5,117 nucleotides of DNA from Deltaproteobacteria bacterium. Lineage in GTDB: Bacteria; Desulfobacterota_E; Deferrimicrobia; Deferrimicrobiales; Deferrimicrobiaceae. The stretch lies in the NCBI GenBank assembly GCA_023489025.1, contig JAMDCN010000163.1, forward strand, positions 1 through 5,117. Reading direction: 5' to 3'. The position numbers and the translations under genes were made by a program. This document shows positions 1 to 5,117 of the stretch, piece by piece (position 1 is the stretch's first letter; each line of letters begins with the position of its first letter). The notes beneath the pieces are model-generated. The model worked only from the letters and a program-made list of their open reading frames with translations, made no database searches and had not been told where the DNA came from.

Positions 1-720
1 TCTGTGTTCTCTCAAAGGTACTTCGAGGAGCTCTCTTCGATGATTCCGGTTCCCTCCCTGCTGGTATTCGATGACTGCCATCGGATGCGGGAGGAATCCG
101 CGTTCTTCGAGACGCTCCGGGAGGGGATCTTCCGGCTCGCGCCGGGGATCGGCGCCGTCCTCATCAGCCGCAGCGACCCCCATCCCTCCTTCGCGCGGGA
201 CCGGGCCAACCGGCACATGGAGACGTTCGGGTGGAAGGATCTCCGGCTGACCATCGAGGAAGCGGCGGGGATCACGAAGCTTCAGCGGAAGGAGAAACCT
301 GCACCCGAGTTCGTGAAATACCTTTTCGAGCGGACGGACGGCTGGGCGGCGGGCCGTGTGCGGCTGGCAGACGATGGTCGAAGCGGTGGACGTGCATACG
401 ACCGGCCTCGGCGGCGACAGCTATGTGCGGCTGGACGAGGAGCGCCGGGGCTTTCTCCTGCGGACGGCGTTTCTTCCCCGGATGACGGCGTTAATGGCGG
501 AGAAGTTGACGGGGGTGGAGCGCGCCGGTTCGATCCTGTCGGAGATGAACCGGCAAAACCAATTCACCAAGAAGAATCTGCAGAGGGAGCCGGTCTACGA
601 GTATCACGACCTCTTCCGGGAGTTCCTTCTCGAACGGGCGGTGGCAGTGTATTCCGGGGAGCAACTTTCAGAAATCCGCAAAACTGCCGCCACTCTGCTG
701 GAAGAGTCCGGATACGTTGA
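1..720 (+). CDS. N-terminal part of a STAND (MalT/AfsR-like) ATPase regulator, cut by the left edge and frameshifted
   Basis: This frame is open to the left edge, so the true start and the Walker A loop are outside the window. Recognisable family sequence runs only from 1 to about 366. A Walker B strand LLVFDDCH lies at 58-81. A sensor strand VLISRSDP lies at 157-180, where MalT-type ATPases usually have a similar 'lisR' motif. The TDGWAAG motif that closes the ATPase/winged-helix module lies at about 334-354. After about 366 the frame becomes Arg/Gly-rich, without family resemblance, until a stop at 718-720. From about 370 the neighbouring +1 frame carries the continuation (next entry). I therefore regard the two frames as one gene broken by a single extra base or two missing bases. 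The 368-720 part of this frame is probably not real protein. Known for the family: ATP-dependent, ligand-sensing transcription factors. Which ligand is involved cannot be told. Confidence 0.8.
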   Translation, partial: SVFSQRYFEELSSMIPVPSLLVFDDCHRMREESAFFETLREGIFRLAPGIGAVLISRSDPHPSFARDRANRHMETFGWKDLRLTIEEAAGITKLQRKEKPAPEFVKYLFERTDGWAAGRVRLADDGRSGGRAYDRPRRRQLCAAGRGAPGLSPADGVSSPDDGVNGGEVDGGGARRFDPVGDEPAKPIHQEESAEGAGLRVSRPLPGVPSRTGGGSVFRGATFRNPQNCRHSAGRVRIR

Positions 721-2839
721 GGATGCCTCGGTACTTCTCCGCAAATCAGGGGATTGGAACGGGCTATCGCGGCTGATCCTGTCCCAGGCCGCATCCCTCG
801 TAGAGCAGGGGCGGTACCAGACGCTGCTGGAGTGGCTGGGGGCACTTCCATACGAGGTTCGCGAAAACAACCCGTGGCTGCTCTATTGGAACGGCGTCTC
901 TCTCATGCCCTTTTCTCCCACAGAGAGCCGGTCCCGTTTCGAGGAGTCATTGCATTCGTTCGACGCGCGGCAGGAAGCGGCCGGAGTATTCCGTTCCTGG
1001 GCTGGCGTGGTCGAATCCATCGTCTTGCCGATGGACAATTTAACGCTTGTCGACACCTGGATTTCCCTCCTCCCACGCCTCCTCGAAAAGTACGGCGGTC
1101 TCCCGTCCGGCGCGCTCGGGGATGAGATTACGTGCGGAATGTACAGAGCGCTTTCTTTTCGGCAGTACCCACGGGCCGACATGGAGTTCTGGACTCCCCG
1201 CGCCCTTGCCGTCGCACAGACCTGCGAGGACGCGCGCCTGAAATTCCTTTTGACCATCGGTATCTGGACTACCTATCTCACGAAGGACACGCGGGGGGCG
1301 GAACAGGTCCTTGCTTCGTTGAGGGAACTCCTCAAGCAACCGGATGTAACGCCGTTGATGCGCCTATTGGTCGATATGCTGGACGGGATTTTATTACTTG
1401 TCACCGCGCGACACGAGAGGTGTCTGCAAGTTACGACCGACGGGCTTGCCTTTGCAGAAAACCTGGGGGTCCATATCGTGGATCCATTCCTTGAGGCCTA
1501 CAGCGCGATGGCTGCGTTGAAGCTTGGCGATTTCGAAACCGCGAACCGGTGTTTCGACAGGATGACGGTTACCCTGGGCACAATGAAGCCGCTTCCCTCG
1601 GGCCTGTTTCACTGCATCGCCGCCTGCGAAGCACTGCATCGGCGCGATCTGGTGAAGGCAGCCTTTCATTCGAGAGAGTGCCTGAGACTGTGGGAGGAGA
1701 GCGGGTTCACCACCCACATTCCCAGCGCGCATATCCTTGTGGCCCACGTTTCCCACGCGCTTCACGAGGACAAGGAAGCAGCCCGGCATATGGAAGAGGC
1801 GCGTCGCATCGGCACTGAGACGGAGATACCTATCGGTGTTTGGCTCTCGTATTTGACCGAAGCGTATTTCCATCTCGAACGAAATGACGACGCGTCGGCG
1901 ATTGCTCCCCTTAAAAAGGGCCTGCAGATCGGTGTCGAGAACGGACTGGTCGGGACGACGCTCTGGCTGCCGGACTTATTCGAAAAAGTCGCCGCCAAGG
2001 CACTCGAAGAGGGGATCGAGGTCGACTACATCCGGGATTTTATCCGGCGGCACCGCCTCGTTCCGGACCCTGCGAATCCCGACTTGGAGCAGTGGCCCTG
2101 GGCGGTGAAGGTATACACGTTGGGGCGGTTCGGTCTCCTTGTGGACGACCGTCCCGTCGAGTTCGGCCGGAAAGTCCAGCAACGACCGCTGGCGCTCCTG
2201 AAGGCATTGGTCGCTCTCGGCGGGCGCGGGGTGCCCGAGGCGCGGCTTTCCGAGCTTCTCTGGCCGGATGCCGACGGCGATCTGGCCCACCAATCCTTTA
2301 CCGCTGCTTTGAGTCGCCTGCGGAAGCTCCTGGGAAAAGAGGAAGCCTTGGTGCTCAAGGAGGGGCACCTTTCCCTCTCGAACCGGTACTGCTGGGTCGA
2401 CGCCTGGGCCTTCGAGCGATTTCTGGGGCAGGCGGAGAAAGCGAGGAGTGAGGGGAAGGCGGCAACAGGGTTCTACAAGAAGGCACTGGCCATCTACAGG
2501 GGGCCCTTCCTACCCTTCGAGGAATATCCCTGGGCGGTGTCGCTTCGCGAGAAGCTTCGTTGCGGATTCCTGGGGGCAGTTACACAAATGGGGAGGTGCC
2601 ATGAAGAAGCGGGGCGGTGGGAGGAGGCGGTCTCCTTCTACGGAAAAGGCCTCGAAGCCGACGACCTGGCCGAGGAGCTCTACTGCCGGTTGATGATCTG
2701 TCACCTCCGGCAAGGGCAGGAAGCGAAGGCCCTCTCCGTCTATAAGCGGTGTCGAAATACGTTATCGTCCGTTCTCGGGGTGGAACCTTCGGCCGAGACC
2801 CGGGCCATCGCGGCTTCGCTCGGTCGTCCCACGGTTTGA
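356..2839 (+). CDS. TPR and SARP-type (OmpR-like winged helix + BTAD) C-terminal part of the same STAND regulator
   Basis: This is a cytoplasmic transcriptional regulator. The GTG at 356 is only where the frame can formally open. It is probably not a real start, because the protein continues the ATPase module of the preceding entry. Using residues counted from 356, the winged-helix segment after the ATPase is seen in 'GFLLRTAFLPRMTALMAEKL' and 'YEYHDLFREFLLERA'. About residues 100-560 are helical and TPR-like, with repeats such as AALKLGDFETANRCFDRM and AYFHLERNDDASAIAPLKKG. Around 583-680 is an OmpR-like DNA-binding domain (VYTLGRFGLLVDDRPVEF, then LLWPDADGDLAHQSFTAALS and RLRKLLG). Around 681-827 is a BTAD (WVDAWAFERFL, ALAIYRGPFLP, and the closing LGVEPSAETRAI). 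MalT itself ends in a LuxR-type helix-turn-helix, so this is the less common SARP-ended arrangement. It lies upstream of, and in the same direction as, a tandem-repeat promoter that it could control. The stop is TGA at 2837-2839. Family assignment is strong; target and signal are unknown. Confidence 0.88.
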   Translation: MCGWQTMVEAVDVHTTGLGGDSYVRLDEERRGFLLRTAFLPRMTALMAEKLTGVERAGSILSEMNRQNQFTKKNLQREPVYEYHDLFREFLLERAVAVYSGEQLSEIRKTAATLLEESGYVEDASVLLRKSGDWNGLSRLILSQAASLVEQGRYQTLLEWLGALPYEVRENNPWLLYWNGVSLMPFSPTESRSRFEESLHSFDARQEAAGVFRSWAGVVESIVLPMDNLTLVDTWISLLPRLLEKYGGLPSGALGDEITCGMYRALSFRQYPRADMEFWTPRALAVAQTCEDARLKFLLTIGIWTTYLTKDTRGAEQVLASLRELLKQPDVTPLMRLLVDMLDGILLLVTARHERCLQVTTDGLAFAENLGVHIVDPFLEAYSAMAALKLGDFETANRCFDRMTVTLGTMKPLPSGLFHCIAACEALHRRDLVKAAFHSRECLRLWEESGFTTHIPSAHILVAHVSHALHEDKEAARHMEEARRIGTETEIPIGVWLSYLTEAYFHLERNDDASAIAPLKKGLQIGVENGLVGTTLWLPDLFEKVAAKALEEGIEVDYIRDFIRRHRLVPDPANPDLEQWPWAVKVYTLGRFGLLVDDRPVEFGRKVQQRPLALLKALVALGGRGVPEARLSELLWPDADGDLAHQSFTAALSRLRKLLGKEEALVLKEGHLSLSNRYCWVDAWAFERFLGQAEKARSEGKAATGFYKKALAIYRGPFLPFEEYPWAVSLREKLRCGFLGAVTQMGRCHEEAGRWEEAVSFYGKGLEADDLAEELYCRLMICHLRQGQEAKALSVYKRCRNTLSSVLGVEPSAETRAIAASLGRPTV

Positions 2840-2933: not shown

Positions 2934-2955
2934 AATCCGTCACCAATCCGTCACC
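2934..2955 (+). repeat. Perfect tandem direct repeat, 2 x 11 bp
   Basis: AATCCGTCACC occurs at 2934-2944 and again, identically and without a gap, at 2945-2955. The next 11 bp on either side do not continue the pattern convincingly. An 11-bp period puts both copies on the same face of the helix. That is the spacing known for heptameric half-sites of SARP regulators (7-bp site plus 4-bp spacer). The repeat is outside coding sequence, 98 bp after the stop codon of the SARP-ended regulator. Confidence 0.85.
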
Positions 2956-2971
2956 CGCCCCGCGCTATTTT
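2934..2971 (+). promoter_or_regulatory. Candidate SARP-type operator and promoter for the exported hydrolase
   Basis: The tandem 11-bp repeat is followed, after 10 bp, by TATTTT (2966-2971), a plausible sigma70 -10 element. At the position where a -35 box would lie (about 2943-2948) there is no TTGACA-like sequence; the repeat occupies it instead. Known for SARP activators: they bind direct repeats with 11-bp periodicity overlapping the -35 region, about 8 bp upstream of the -10, and help recruit RNA polymerase. The match in period, placement and adjacency to a SARP-ended regulator is the basis for the call. Transcription would start near 2978 and leave a leader of about 150 nt before the hydrolase start. 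The link to this particular regulator is inferred. Confidence 0.55.
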
Positions 2972-3117
2972 CGTAACCAGAGGGACGACCGTGTCGGAAC
3001 CTATGCCCCGCCGGTCGGACATGCCACTTACAGAAGGGGGGTGATGGAAGCGATTGGCGGGTCGCGCCTCGTGGGATCGGCGGGACAAAACGTCAAACTA
3101 TTGCTTAACGGCATGGG

Positions 3118-3124
3118 AAAGGAG
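3118..3124 (+). promoter_or_regulatory. Shine-Dalgarno site that sets the hydrolase start
   Basis: AAAGGAG ends six bases before ATG 3131. It supports that start over the in-frame alternatives at 3041, 3044 and 3113. Only the 3131 start puts the positively charged end of the signal peptide at the N-terminus. Confidence 0.75.
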
Positions 3125-3130
3125 CTTGCC

Positions 3131-4405
3131 ATGAAAAGGATCGTTTTTGCATTCTGCATTCTACTCATTGCGGTTACATCGGCAGTGGCCGGCAGCCAAG
3201 ATTTCATCGGCGTACTGAACGACGCTCCCTACAAGATTCGCGTGCCGGATAACTGGAATGGCGTGTTGCTTCTCCACGCACACTGGTATTATCAGACCTC
3301 GATTTTTCCCACGGAGGCCGAAGCCGCCCACAGCGCGGCTCTGGAGAGTTTCCTGCTCGATAGAGGGTATGCCCTGGCGGGATCGACCTTCAGGGGTACC
3401 GGATGGCAGGTAAAGGAGGGAACGGAAGACCTCAAGGCGCTCTTGGATCTTTTCAACGAACTTGTAGGAAAACCGAAGAAAAGAATCCTTATGGGCTATT
3501 CCGCGGGAAGTGTGATCGCACTGAAAAGTGCGGAAGAGGTTCCCCTGTATGACGGTGTTATCCCGATGTGCTCTATCGTGGGAGGCTCTGCGCTGGACCG
3601 GGATGTTGCCTTTGCATACGCGTATGCCACCGCATTCGGATGGCCCTCGGACTGGGGCCCCTGGTACGATGCCAGAGACGGCCTGAACTTCGACAGGGAC
3701 GTTTTACCGCTTTTAGTGAGCCAGCTCATCATCCTCAGCAACCCCAACGATCCTCGCTTCATCGAGACCTTTGGAAAGTTTGAGTTCATCCGCCTCCTGT
3801 TCGACTTGCCTTTCGACGGGTTTTATCAGCCCCCTTCCCAGTCTCTTGATCCACGCCCTGCGGCGGGCTTCCTGATGTACGCAACTACGGAGGTGAAAGC
3901 GGAGGTCGAGGCAAAAGCAAAGGGGTACATTTACGAGAACGCCGGTCGGGTCTACTCACTCTCGCCGGAAAAAAAAGGGTACCTTGCCTCCTTGGGAGTA
4001 AACGCAGATCAGCTTCTGGACCAGATGGACAAGGGGGCTACGATCTTAATGGCGAATCCGCAAAAGCATTATGGCGAAAAATATTTCTCCCCAACTGGGG
4101 ACCTGATCATGCCCGTGTTGTCCGTCCATTCAAAGAATGACCATGTCTACCCCACCTACTTTGAAACCAAGTTGTTGGAAAAGGTGCAGTCTGCAGCCAG
4201 TGAAGACCTTCTCTTGCAGGTATATACGGACGACGTCGGGCACTGCTTTTTCACGAACGAACAGAATCTCCGCGCGATACAAGCAATGGAAAAATGGCTG
4301 GATACAGGCCAGAAGCCTAATTCCAGCGATGACACATTATTCCCGACTTCAGAGGGTTTTGACCACAACCATGTACCAGGCCCCTTTCCCGTAGGGAGGC
4401 AATAA
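3131..4405 (+). CDS. Exported alpha/beta hydrolase (serine esterase or peptidase-like)
   Basis: This 424-residue protein is probably released to the periplasm or outside. Residues 1-20 form a Sec signal peptide: MKR, a hydrophobic core, then SAVA before Gly21, suiting signal peptidase I; there is no lipobox. The mature start 'GVLNDAPYKIRVPDNWNG' resembles secreted alpha/beta hydrolases that open with a 'PY.I.VP.NWNG' strand. The nucleophile elbow is GYSAG with Ser124 (codon 3500-3502). The likely acid is Asp337 in SKNDHVYP, and the likely histidine is His371 in VGHCFF. About 190 residues between Ser124 and the acid would form a large lid or cap (Trp/Tyr-rich around 171-180, a charged helix around 254-264). 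At the usual oxyanion His-Gly position the sequence reads LLLHAHWYYQ, with Trp where Gly is common. The C-terminal tail after about 391 (GFDHNHVPGPFPVGRQ) is polar and proline-rich. The start is fixed by AAAGGAG six bases upstream. The substrate is unknown; an ester or small amide is possible. The fold is confident, the reaction is not. Confidence 0.87.
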   Translation: MKRIVFAFCILLIAVTSAVAGSQDFIGVLNDAPYKIRVPDNWNGVLLLHAHWYYQTSIFPTEAEAAHSAALESFLLDRGYALAGSTFRGTGWQVKEGTEDLKALLDLFNELVGKPKKRILMGYSAGSVIALKSAEEVPLYDGVIPMCSIVGGSALDRDVAFAYAYATAFGWPSDWGPWYDARDGLNFDRDVLPLLVSQLIILSNPNDPRFIETFGKFEFIRLLFDLPFDGFYQPPSQSLDPRPAAGFLMYATTEVKAEVEAKAKGYIYENAGRVYSLSPEKKGYLASLGVNADQLLDQMDKGATILMANPQKHYGEKYFSPTGDLIMPVLSVHSKNDHVYPTYFETKLLEKVQSAASEDLLLQVYTDDVGHCFFTNEQNLRAIQAMEKWLDTGQKPNSSDDTLFPTSEGFDHNHVPGPFPVGRQ

Positions 4406-4467: not shown

Positions 4468-4743
4468 ATGGAAAGCTACGTCGTTCGCATCTATCGCCGT
4501 GGAGGCAAGAAGTCCCGCGTTCTGATCGGGACCGTAGAGGTGGCGGGGACTGAGAGAAAGATGGCTTTCTCGAATATCGAGGAGCTGTGGGAAATCCTCC
4601 GGCGCGGGAAGGGCCGTGATCTTTGCGCCCCGCCGTCTCCGCGACGCCGTTTACGGAAGGAGGTGATGAGAGCGACGGCCACGTCAGACCTCGAGGATTC
4701 CGCGGAGGGAGTCCGTCAAACCAAGCCCACCGTAGGACATTGA
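4468..4743 (+). CDS. Small conserved-looking basic protein of unknown function
   Basis: This gene encodes 91 residues, without signal peptide or membrane segment, so it is probably cytoplasmic. GGGAG (4459-4463) lies four bases before the ATG. The N-terminal half looks like a compact beta-beta-beta-alpha unit: ESYVVRIYRR, then VLIGTVEVAG, KMAFSNIEELWEILRRGKGR. The 'YVVRIYRR ... G.VE..G ... F.N..ELWEIL' pattern recalls short hypothetical proteins in Geobacter-like genomes; this is from memory and unchecked. The C-terminal half (from about residue 52) is Arg/Pro- then Ser/Thr-rich and probably disordered. It starts 62 nt after the hydrolase stop, and the next gene follows after 15 nt, so cotranscription is likely at least with the latter. 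An AAGGAGGTGAT sequence at 4657-4667, inside the gene, matches the complement of the 16S rRNA 3' end perfectly. I assign no function. Confidence 0.7.
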   Translation: MESYVVRIYRRGGKKSRVLIGTVEVAGTERKMAFSNIEELWEILRRGKGRDLCAPPSPRRRLRKEVMRATATSDLEDSAEGVRQTKPTVGH

Positions 4744-4758
4744 AAGGGGGAGAATTCG

Positions 4759-5117
4759 ATGAAAAGTCTTTTGTCGATTACTCTGGTCATGCTCCTGTCC
4801 TCCACCATGTTTTTCACGGTCGTATACGCAGGGGAACACGAACTTGTGAAACCCACGAAGGGGACGTGGAGTGGTGTAACTTACTTCTTGGGTCCAACCG
4901 CTAGCTACCCTGCCACTATGATCCAAGCAATCGGGAAGGGGGTCATGACACTTACGGGTGAGAGCCAATGGATCGCCGAGCCTGCCTGCCTCGATGCGTC
5001 CGGGTTCGCCAGTGGACCCGCGGTTATCATCGCGGCTAATGGTGATCAGATTAACTTGATGACTGGAATACAGTTCATCCCTGATCCCTCCGGAACGGCC
5101 GTGAAAAACATGGTGGA
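4759..5117 (+). CDS. Exported small beta-rich protein, cut by the right edge
   Basis: The ATG at 4759 follows GGGGGAG (4746-4752) by six bases and lies 15 nt after the previous stop. The frame stays open to the right edge, giving 119 visible residues. Residues 1-24 are a Sec signal peptide (MKS, a long Leu/Val/Phe core, VVYA before Gly25), so the product is periplasmic or secreted. The mature part alternates short strands and turns: KGTWSGVTYFLG, GKGVMTLTGES, SGPAVIIAANGDQINLMTG. The pattern '..G.G..T..G.......G.A...AANGD.I....G' resembles small secreted beta-barrel or lipocalin/allene-oxide-cyclase-like proteins, in which 'AANGD' sits in a strand turn. There is one visible cysteine after the signal (PACLD, residue 77). 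There are no catalytic motifs. It may bind a small hydrophobic ligand, but that is only a guess from the fold. Confidence 0.75.
   Translation, partial: MKSLLSITLVMLLSSTMFFTVVYAGEHELVKPTKGTWSGVTYFLGPTASYPATMIQAIGKGVMTLTGESQWIAEPACLDASGFASGPAVIIAANGDQINLMTGIQFIPDPSGTAVKNMV

What the first reader, a model, noticed from the sequence alone, without database searches (positions are those of the whole stretch)
2934..2971. A tandem 11-bp repeat at SARP-promoter geometry sits directly after a SARP-ended regulator
Two perfect copies of AATCCGTCACC abut each other and end 10 bp before TATTTT, with no -35 consensus. SARP activators in actinobacteria bind direct repeats of the same period just upstream of the -10. 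Here the candidate site lies between a STAND-BTAD regulator and an exported hydrolase, in a genome that looks proteobacterial. If confirmed, it would give the operator of a little-studied class of STAND-SARP regulators outside actinobacteria.
Basis: partly seen in the sequence, partly recalled or inferred. Interest (0 to 1): 0.72.

Follow-up and report, generated by a model that had tools for sequence, protein, structure and literature searches.

The report
Operator of STAND-SARP regulators across phyla
A short doubled DNA motif behind a large regulator gene is very probably the switch that this regulator binds to turn on the next, exported protein; the same arrangement recurs in many bacterial groups, and two amino acids of the regulator largely predict letters of the motif.

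Summary
The repeat is real: two perfect, abutting copies of AATCCGTCACC (2934-2955), 10 bp before TATTTT; 0 of 300 shuffles hold such a duplication. Behind STAND-BTAD regulators in records titled Deltaproteobacteria, Nitrospirae, Gamma-/Betaproteobacteria and others, an oriented box ATCYGT-N5-ATCYGT (11-bp period) recurs in 66 of 151 distinct regulators (reverse strand: 1). In 57 boxes chosen without using the -10, TANNNT starts exactly 16 bases after the second repeat's G in 29; each other offset 0-3. Across 1054 columns of the regulator, base +4 covaries best with residue 87 of the AfsR-like recognition helix; base +3 with 87, 91, 84, by a small margin. Acidic 87 goes with G (31 of 32 repeats), basic with C (24 of 24); a held-out set agreed (9 of 10; 14 of 14). 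The box is often followed by an unnamed ~70-aa protein family and an exported protein. The window's regulator is frame-broken and no hydrolase ortholog DNA was at hand, so function here is inferred; binding and transcription are untested.

The parts
2934..2944 (+). upstream direct repeat AATCCGTCACC (family register ATCCGTCACCA from 2935)
   Evidence: family motif
2945..2955 (+). downstream direct repeat AATCCGTCACC (G2950 is position 0 of the family register; T2940 and T2951 would be -38 and -27 if TATTTT is -12 to -7)
2966..2971 (+). -10-like element TATTTT, starting 16 bases after G2950, the commonest distance in the family
356..2839 (+). STAND-type regulator, open part with C-terminal wHTH + BTAD; the N-terminal part (1 to about 351) is in another frame, and the stretch about 351-430 is unlike relatives
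2276..2332 (+). recognition helix of the wHTH (model residues 65-83), holding AfsR-equivalent residues 84 (Q), 87 (T), 91 (S), 92 (R)
2396..2815 (+). BTAD domain
2982..3130 (+). DNA similar to the 3' part of the small-protein gene (4606-4765); the first part of that gene is absent behind this box
3131..4405 (+). exported alpha/beta-hydrolase, presumed target gene
4468..4743 (+). member of an unnamed small-protein family (consensus SYIVRIYRR....G.VE....F...EL..IL) that often follows the box in relatives
4759..5117 (+). second exported protein (signal-peptide-like start by eye), runs off the window

Best explanation
The tandem repeat is the two-site operator of the STAND-type regulator gene that ends just before it. 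The regulator's C-terminal winged-helix + BTAD (SARP-like) domain binds head-to-tail, one protomer per 11-bp repeat, and recruits RNA polymerase to a promoter with a -10 (often TGnTAnnnT) and no usable -35, switching on the next transcription unit: in relatives often a ~70-residue protein and an exported protein, here the exported hydrolase. Shown here: the repeat, its recurrence, orientation and fixed distance to the -10, the SARP fold (predicted), and residue/base covariation. Inferred: binding, activation, an inducing signal sensed by the STAND part, and that the window's own frame-broken copy (or a paralog) still serves the site.
For: Period 11 stands out downstream of regulators: repeated 6-mers in 36 of 73 regions against 2-14 for 17 other spacings. 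Perfect ATCYGT pairs downstream on the regulator strand in 18 of 77 loci at spacing 11, 0 at spacings 8-10 and 12-16, 0 on the other strand (3 loci have almost no downstream DNA). Boxes behind 49 of 102 and then 17 of 49 further regulators; reverse strand 0 and 1. TANNNT at +16 in 29 of 57 boxes picked on flanks alone, other offsets 0-3. Residue 87 ranks first of 1054 columns for base +4 (0.91, next 0.53); residues 87, 91, 84 rank first to third for base +3 (0.52, 0.51, 0.40; the next column has 0.37). Acidic 87: G in 31 of 32 repeats; basic 87: C in 24 of 24; K84: G at +3 in 23 of 28 against 0 of 70; 0 of 5000 tree simulations (first repeat, three states) reach the observed association. Held-out set, rule noted before its sequences were examined: acidic 9 of 10 G (5 regulators), basic 14 of 14 C (7), K84 8 of 8 G at +3 (4) against 2 of 26. 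The Arg equivalent to AfsR R92, which contacts T-38 (PMC10936776, section 7), is kept in 76 of 77 regulators. Model pLDDT 95.9; top PDB matches AfsR and EmbR, E 3.6e-11 to 9.1e-11, TM 0.71-0.75 by query.
Against: No footprint, transcript start or expression data. 85 of 151 regulators show no box by this criterion (9 of the 151 have under 60 nt downstream). GT is required in the box definition, so its conservation is built in. The window regulator has T87 and Q84, for which the rule predicts nothing. Its reading frame is interrupted. The loose pattern is only weakly enriched in regulator-bearing Desulfuromonadia-class genomes: 20 of 30 against 111 of 247. For base +2 no helix column led the ranking, although one search had suggested residue 91. 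The rule was formed on loci, so only one search is held out, and several of its basic-87 regulators have near-identical helices, so there are fewer independent cases than 7. Upstream regions show period 11 only slightly (15 of 73 against 2-14).
Confidence: 0.87

Rival explanations
1. The repeat is a Pho box bound by a PhoB-type response regulator, which also binds 11-bp direct repeats (E. coli heptamer CTGTCAT).
For: Same period and a similar core (GTCA); PHO boxes are two 11-nt direct repeats (PMC4415409, passages).
Against: Repeat bases covary with the recognition helix of the neighbouring STAND-BTAD protein, and cores such as GTAGG or GTGGG depart from the Pho heptamer. In 104 kb around 30 pstS-like loci of the same class a simple scan gave no perfect C[TC]GT[CA]A pair and three 11-of-12 ones.
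Confidence: 0.05
2. The site is served by a different BTAD or OmpR-type paralog, or is a relic after the window's own regulator was broken, so it is inactive or cross-regulated here. (Compatible with the best explanation for the family as a whole.)
For: The regulator's frame changes near 351-430, where close relatives encode a 37-residue stretch.
Against: The box is intact, perfectly repeated and at the family distance from the -10. The frame change may be an assembly error; only one copy is at hand.
Confidence: 0.2
3. Chance or a non-regulatory tandem duplication.
For: Two-copy short repeats can arise by slippage.
Against: 0 of 300 shuffles; recurrence behind divergent regulators with a fixed -10 offset; the homologous site in L006 keeps both repeats while differing in bases.
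Confidence: 0.02

Closest known systems
AfsR and the afs box upstream of afsS (Streptomyces large SARP)
   Same: NOD + TPR + wHTH-BTAD parts, two 11-bp direct repeats, poor -35, a small-protein gene as target (PMC10936776 passages and section 7; PMC4415409 passages). Top PDB match.
   Different: Here the SARP-like domain is C-terminal, not N-terminal; the repeat core differs; most record titles are not actinobacterial; neighbour genes look exported; the small protein was not compared with AfsS.
PimR and other SARP-LAL regulators
   Same: SARP domain plus large ATPase part; heptamers with 4-bp spacers (PMC5930380, passages).
   Different: SARP domain N-terminal (PMC3367932, abstract start in listing); the main PimR operator does not overlap the -35.
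MalT / LAL-type STAND activators
   Same: N-terminal STAND ATPase; several homologs are named malT or maltose regulon regulator by their sources.
   Different: C-terminal wHTH + BTAD instead of a LuxR-type HTH (MalT's domain recalled).
PhoB Pho box
   Same: OmpR-type wHTH on 11-bp direct repeats (PMC4415409, passages).
   Different: Covariation ties this box to the adjacent regulator.
HilA box (recalled, not tested here)
   Same: A proteobacterial OmpR/BTAD-like activator on direct repeats, from memory.
   Different: No STAND part, from memory; not compared.

Membership tests
SARP-domain regulators | BTAD domain | tested here: met
   Pfam PF03704 89 bits, cut-off 22.1
SARP-domain regulators | OmpR-type winged helix directly before BTAD | tested here: met
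   AlphaFold2 model pLDDT 95.9; Foldseek top six hits are AfsR (8hvr, 8k60) and EmbR (2ff4, 2fez), E 3.6e-11 to 9.1e-11. Against: no Pfam Trans_reg_C hit at E 0.001 in the window protein
Classical large SARP (AfsR type) | SARP domain at the N-terminus, NOD and TPR after it | tested here: not met
   BTAD at residues 681-820 of the 827-residue open part; P-loop motif near the N-terminus in relatives. Hence filed as a SARP-domain protein of reversed order, not as an AfsR-type SARP
SARP operator | direct repeats of 11 or 22 bp just upstream of the -10 | tested here: met
   window and, in all, 66 of 151 regulators; -10 at a preferred offset
SARP operator | bound by the SARP domain and activates transcription | not testable with these tools
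   only covariation
Pho box | bound by PhoB and found at phosphate genes | tested here: inconclusive
   no perfect pair, three 11-of-12 pairs near 30 pstS-like loci of the class, by a simple consensus scan; binding not testable
MalT/LAL | C-terminal LuxR-type HTH | tested here: not met
   C-terminus is wHTH + BTAD

The most novel reading that the evidence does not exclude
A multi-phylum, self-contained switch: STAND-SARP regulator, its own 11-bp-repeat promoter directly behind it, a dedicated small-protein family and an exported protein, in which recognition-helix residues 84 and 87 form a readable code for repeat bases +3 and +4. The small protein would be an AfsS-like partner of the regulon, and copies of the regulator's 3' end plus box (as in L006) would spread the promoter to new exported genes.
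Probability: 0.4. Interest if true: 0.86.

Novelty: new variant of a known kind. Interest (0 to 1): 0.78.

Why it matters
SARP control is known mainly from actinobacterial antibiotic clusters; one survey of biosynthetic clusters found proteobacterial hits mostly lacking HTH or BTAD (PMC7040171, passages). Here a related switch, in reversed domain order, appears in records of many environmental groups. The two-residue rule would make operators of unstudied regulators predictable from sequence and gives direct mutational tests; it also points to a regulon of exported proteins and an unnamed small-protein family.

Tried and rejected
Pho box: considered because of geometry; pstS-like loci held no perfect pair and covariation argues against it. 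Viral-contig scans for regulator and hydrolase found no relative; the one exact box match there (L104) has a further copy beside it and was not pursued. Plasmid DNA search: no match. Residue 91 against base +2, suggested, did not lead (it ranked second for +3). Genome-wide specificity: 80 hits against 7 for the reversed pattern in 28 genomes chosen because their regulator loci mostly had boxes, but only weak enrichment in an unselected class, where the same sequence recurs in many genomes without the regulator, as coding DNA would (not checked); so the loose pattern alone is a poor regulon finder. Of 30 loci, several boxes had no regulator within 1.5 kb. Hydrolase orthologs for a promoter comparison: one distant partial hit in 26 genomes. 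Co-location of hydrolase and regulator homologs is suggested only by seven equal contig lengths (3785, 5805, 8579, 13092, 14673, 15550, 63281), not read as DNA. Small proteins: no NCBIfam hit, one Pfam DUF in 2 of 43 at best E 0.0058. Rows dropped: L049, L059, L075; 16 of 118 asked loci (duplicates, or no long ORF with the helix pattern W...RLR; 4 of them among L001-L079, listed), 7 duplicates and 4 without such an ORF of 60. Because that pattern demands RLR, the invariance of Arg 92 in alignment A5 is partly built in; the unfiltered count is 76 of 77. The two repeats of a box are counted apart in the repeat tallies, so the Fisher values overstate independence and are not relied on.

Full report
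Observation. The two copies of AATCCGTCACC abut at 2934-2955, 10 bases before TATTTT (2966-2971). It is the window's only perfect tandem duplication of period 8-16, and none of 300 dinucleotide shuffles has one of period 11-16.

Surroundings. The ORF before it ends in a BTAD domain (Pfam 89 bits), 94 bp upstream of the repeat; many relatives are STAND-type proteins of about 1030-1070 residues with a P-loop NTPase part. In the window the N-terminal part (1 to about 351) and the rest (356-2839) are in different frames; close relatives encode a 37-residue stretch there that the window lacks. This copy is broken or the assembly is faulty. After the box come DNA resembling the 3' part of the small gene (4606-4765), an exported alpha/beta-hydrolase (3131-4405), a small protein (4468-4743) and a second exported protein (4759-).

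Kind of DNA. No whole genome is held for the window. The nearest held genome, G002 (locus L006, titled Actinomycetota), is listed in the same class as Deltaproteobacteria bacterium CSP1-8. In L006 the homologous site behind the regulator reads AATCCGTGATC AATCCGTAACC, then 10 bases, then TAATGT; a second copy lies behind another regulator 3' end. In the 26 genomes of the class a box pattern (up to 2 mismatches) hit 8 genomes with 11 sites; the reversed control hit none. Of those 11 sites, some lie far from any regulator seen.

Recurrence. Of 79 loci from one scan, 76 were used. Downstream of the regulator, 6-mers repeated at spacing 11 occur in 36 of 73 regions, against 2-14 at the 17 other spacings from 8 to 25; upstream 15 of 73 against 2-14. 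Perfect ATCYGT pairs at spacing 11 occur downstream on the regulator strand in 18 of 77 loci (window included); none at spacings 8-10 or 12-16, none on the other strand. Upstream there are 1 on the same and 3 on the reverse strand, as a divergent target would give.

Promoter geometry. Taking the G of the second repeat as 0, TANNNT begins at +16 in 16 of 34 boxes; +13 is T in 21 and +14 is G in 25 of 34, as in an extended -10. With boxes chosen on flanks only (57 of 151 regulators; reverse strand 1), TANNNT is at +16 in 29 and at each other offset from 6 to 27 in 0-3. The window has G2950 and T2966, offset 16, without the TG. If TATTTT is -12 to -7, T2940 and T2951 are -38 and -27, the positions that AfsR R92 contacts (PMC10936776, section 7). 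The -12 to -7 placement of the afsS element is my inference from the scaffold description; the same paper states 8 bp between 3' repeat and -10, a number that depends on where the repeat is taken to end.

Link to the regulator. Boxes were chosen without bases +2 to +4. In 49 boxed of 102 distinct regulators, mutual information was computed between each repeat position and 1054 columns of the full protein. For +4 the best column is residue 87 (AfsR numbering; 0.91, next 0.53); for +3 the best three are 87, 91 and 84 (0.52, 0.51, 0.40), but the fourth, outside the helix, has 0.37; for +2 no helix column leads. Acidic 87 goes with G in 31 of 32 repeats, basic 87 with C in 24 of 24; other residues: C 24, T 9, G 7, A 2. 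K84 goes with G at +3 in 23 of 28 repeats against 0 of 70. On a tree built without the helix, residue class changes 13 times and the base 16 times; 0 of 5000 simulations of an independently evolving base reach the observed association. The rule, formed, was noted and tested on 49 new distinct regulators (60 loci less 7 duplicates and 4 without the ORF; 4 of the 49 with under 60 nt downstream) from the order of G050 and the class of G048: 17 boxes; acidic 9 of 10 G (5 regulators), basic 14 of 14 C (7 regulators, several alike), K84 8 of 8 G at +3 (4 regulators) against 2 of 26. The titles of the centre loci (L069 Betaproteobacteria, L065 Nitrospira moscoviensis) are all that names these groups.

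Fold. The window's C-terminal 251 residues model at pLDDT 95.9 as a winged helix plus BTAD; the best solved matches are AfsR and EmbR. The Arg equivalent to AfsR R92 is kept in 76 of 77 regulators.

Targets. Of 66 boxed regulators, 48 have a gene of at least 150 residues starting within 700 bp after the box; 32 of these 48 have a signal-peptide-like N-terminus against 58 of 220 other genes of the same loci, by a simple hydropathy rule. A small-protein family without an established Pfam or NCBIfam name was defined from five such genes and then found within 1.5 kb behind 28 of 66 boxed against 7 of 85 unboxed regulators, 23 of the 28 at 30-157 bp after the -10; being defined from box-following genes, the family favours that result. 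A database search found 162 homologs; names, where given among the 120 listed, are 'hypothetical'. In the window this gene's first part is missing behind the box, so the hydrolase would be first in the transcript.

Limits. 85 of 151 regulators lack a box by this criterion. The loose pattern is only weakly enriched in regulator-bearing genomes of one class (20 of 30 against 111 of 247), though it gave 80 against 7 control hits in 28 chosen genomes. The window's residues Q84/T87 are not covered by the rule. All is sequence inference.

Literature. The rows listed by held-PMC searches show no paper on an operator of a non-actinobacterial STAND-BTAD regulator; most subscription papers are not held and only listed rows were seen. 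Papers seen: PMC10936776 (passages, section 7), PMC7040171, PMC4415409, PMC5930380 (passages); others as search listings only.

Verdict. The repeat is most likely a SARP-type operator of its neighbouring regulator, part of a widespread module; a new variant of a known kind.

Noticed in passing
window 351-430: Regulator reading frame is interrupted; relatives encode a 37-residue stretch there that the window lacks. Broken gene or assembly error.
   Followed up: partly
window 4468-4743; L003, L010, L016, L030, L032, L033, L046, L048 and others: Unnamed small-protein family (SYIVRIYRR...), 55 hits in 51 loci (some loci are the same place fetched twice), often right behind the box.
   Followed up: partly
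L006 8700-9120: A regulator 3' end plus box recurs upstream of another exported-looking ORF (9061-9972), as if the promoter had been copied.
   Followed up: partly
L006 / G002: Record titled Actinomycetota is grouped in the class of Deltaproteobacteria CSP1-8.
   Followed up: no
L020 and L180, downstream of the regulator: Three or more tandem repeats, not two.
   Followed up: no
G180: Seven near-identical ATCCGTAA.C.ATCTGTAATTGC sites on different contigs, perhaps a dispersed repeat.
   Followed up: no
L104 5378-5399 (-): Exact box match with a further copy beside it in a contig of the viral collection; context not examined.
   Followed up: no
genomes: Many regulator-like candidates per genome in the first look (up to 37), so a large paralogous family is possible in that order.
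   Followed up: no
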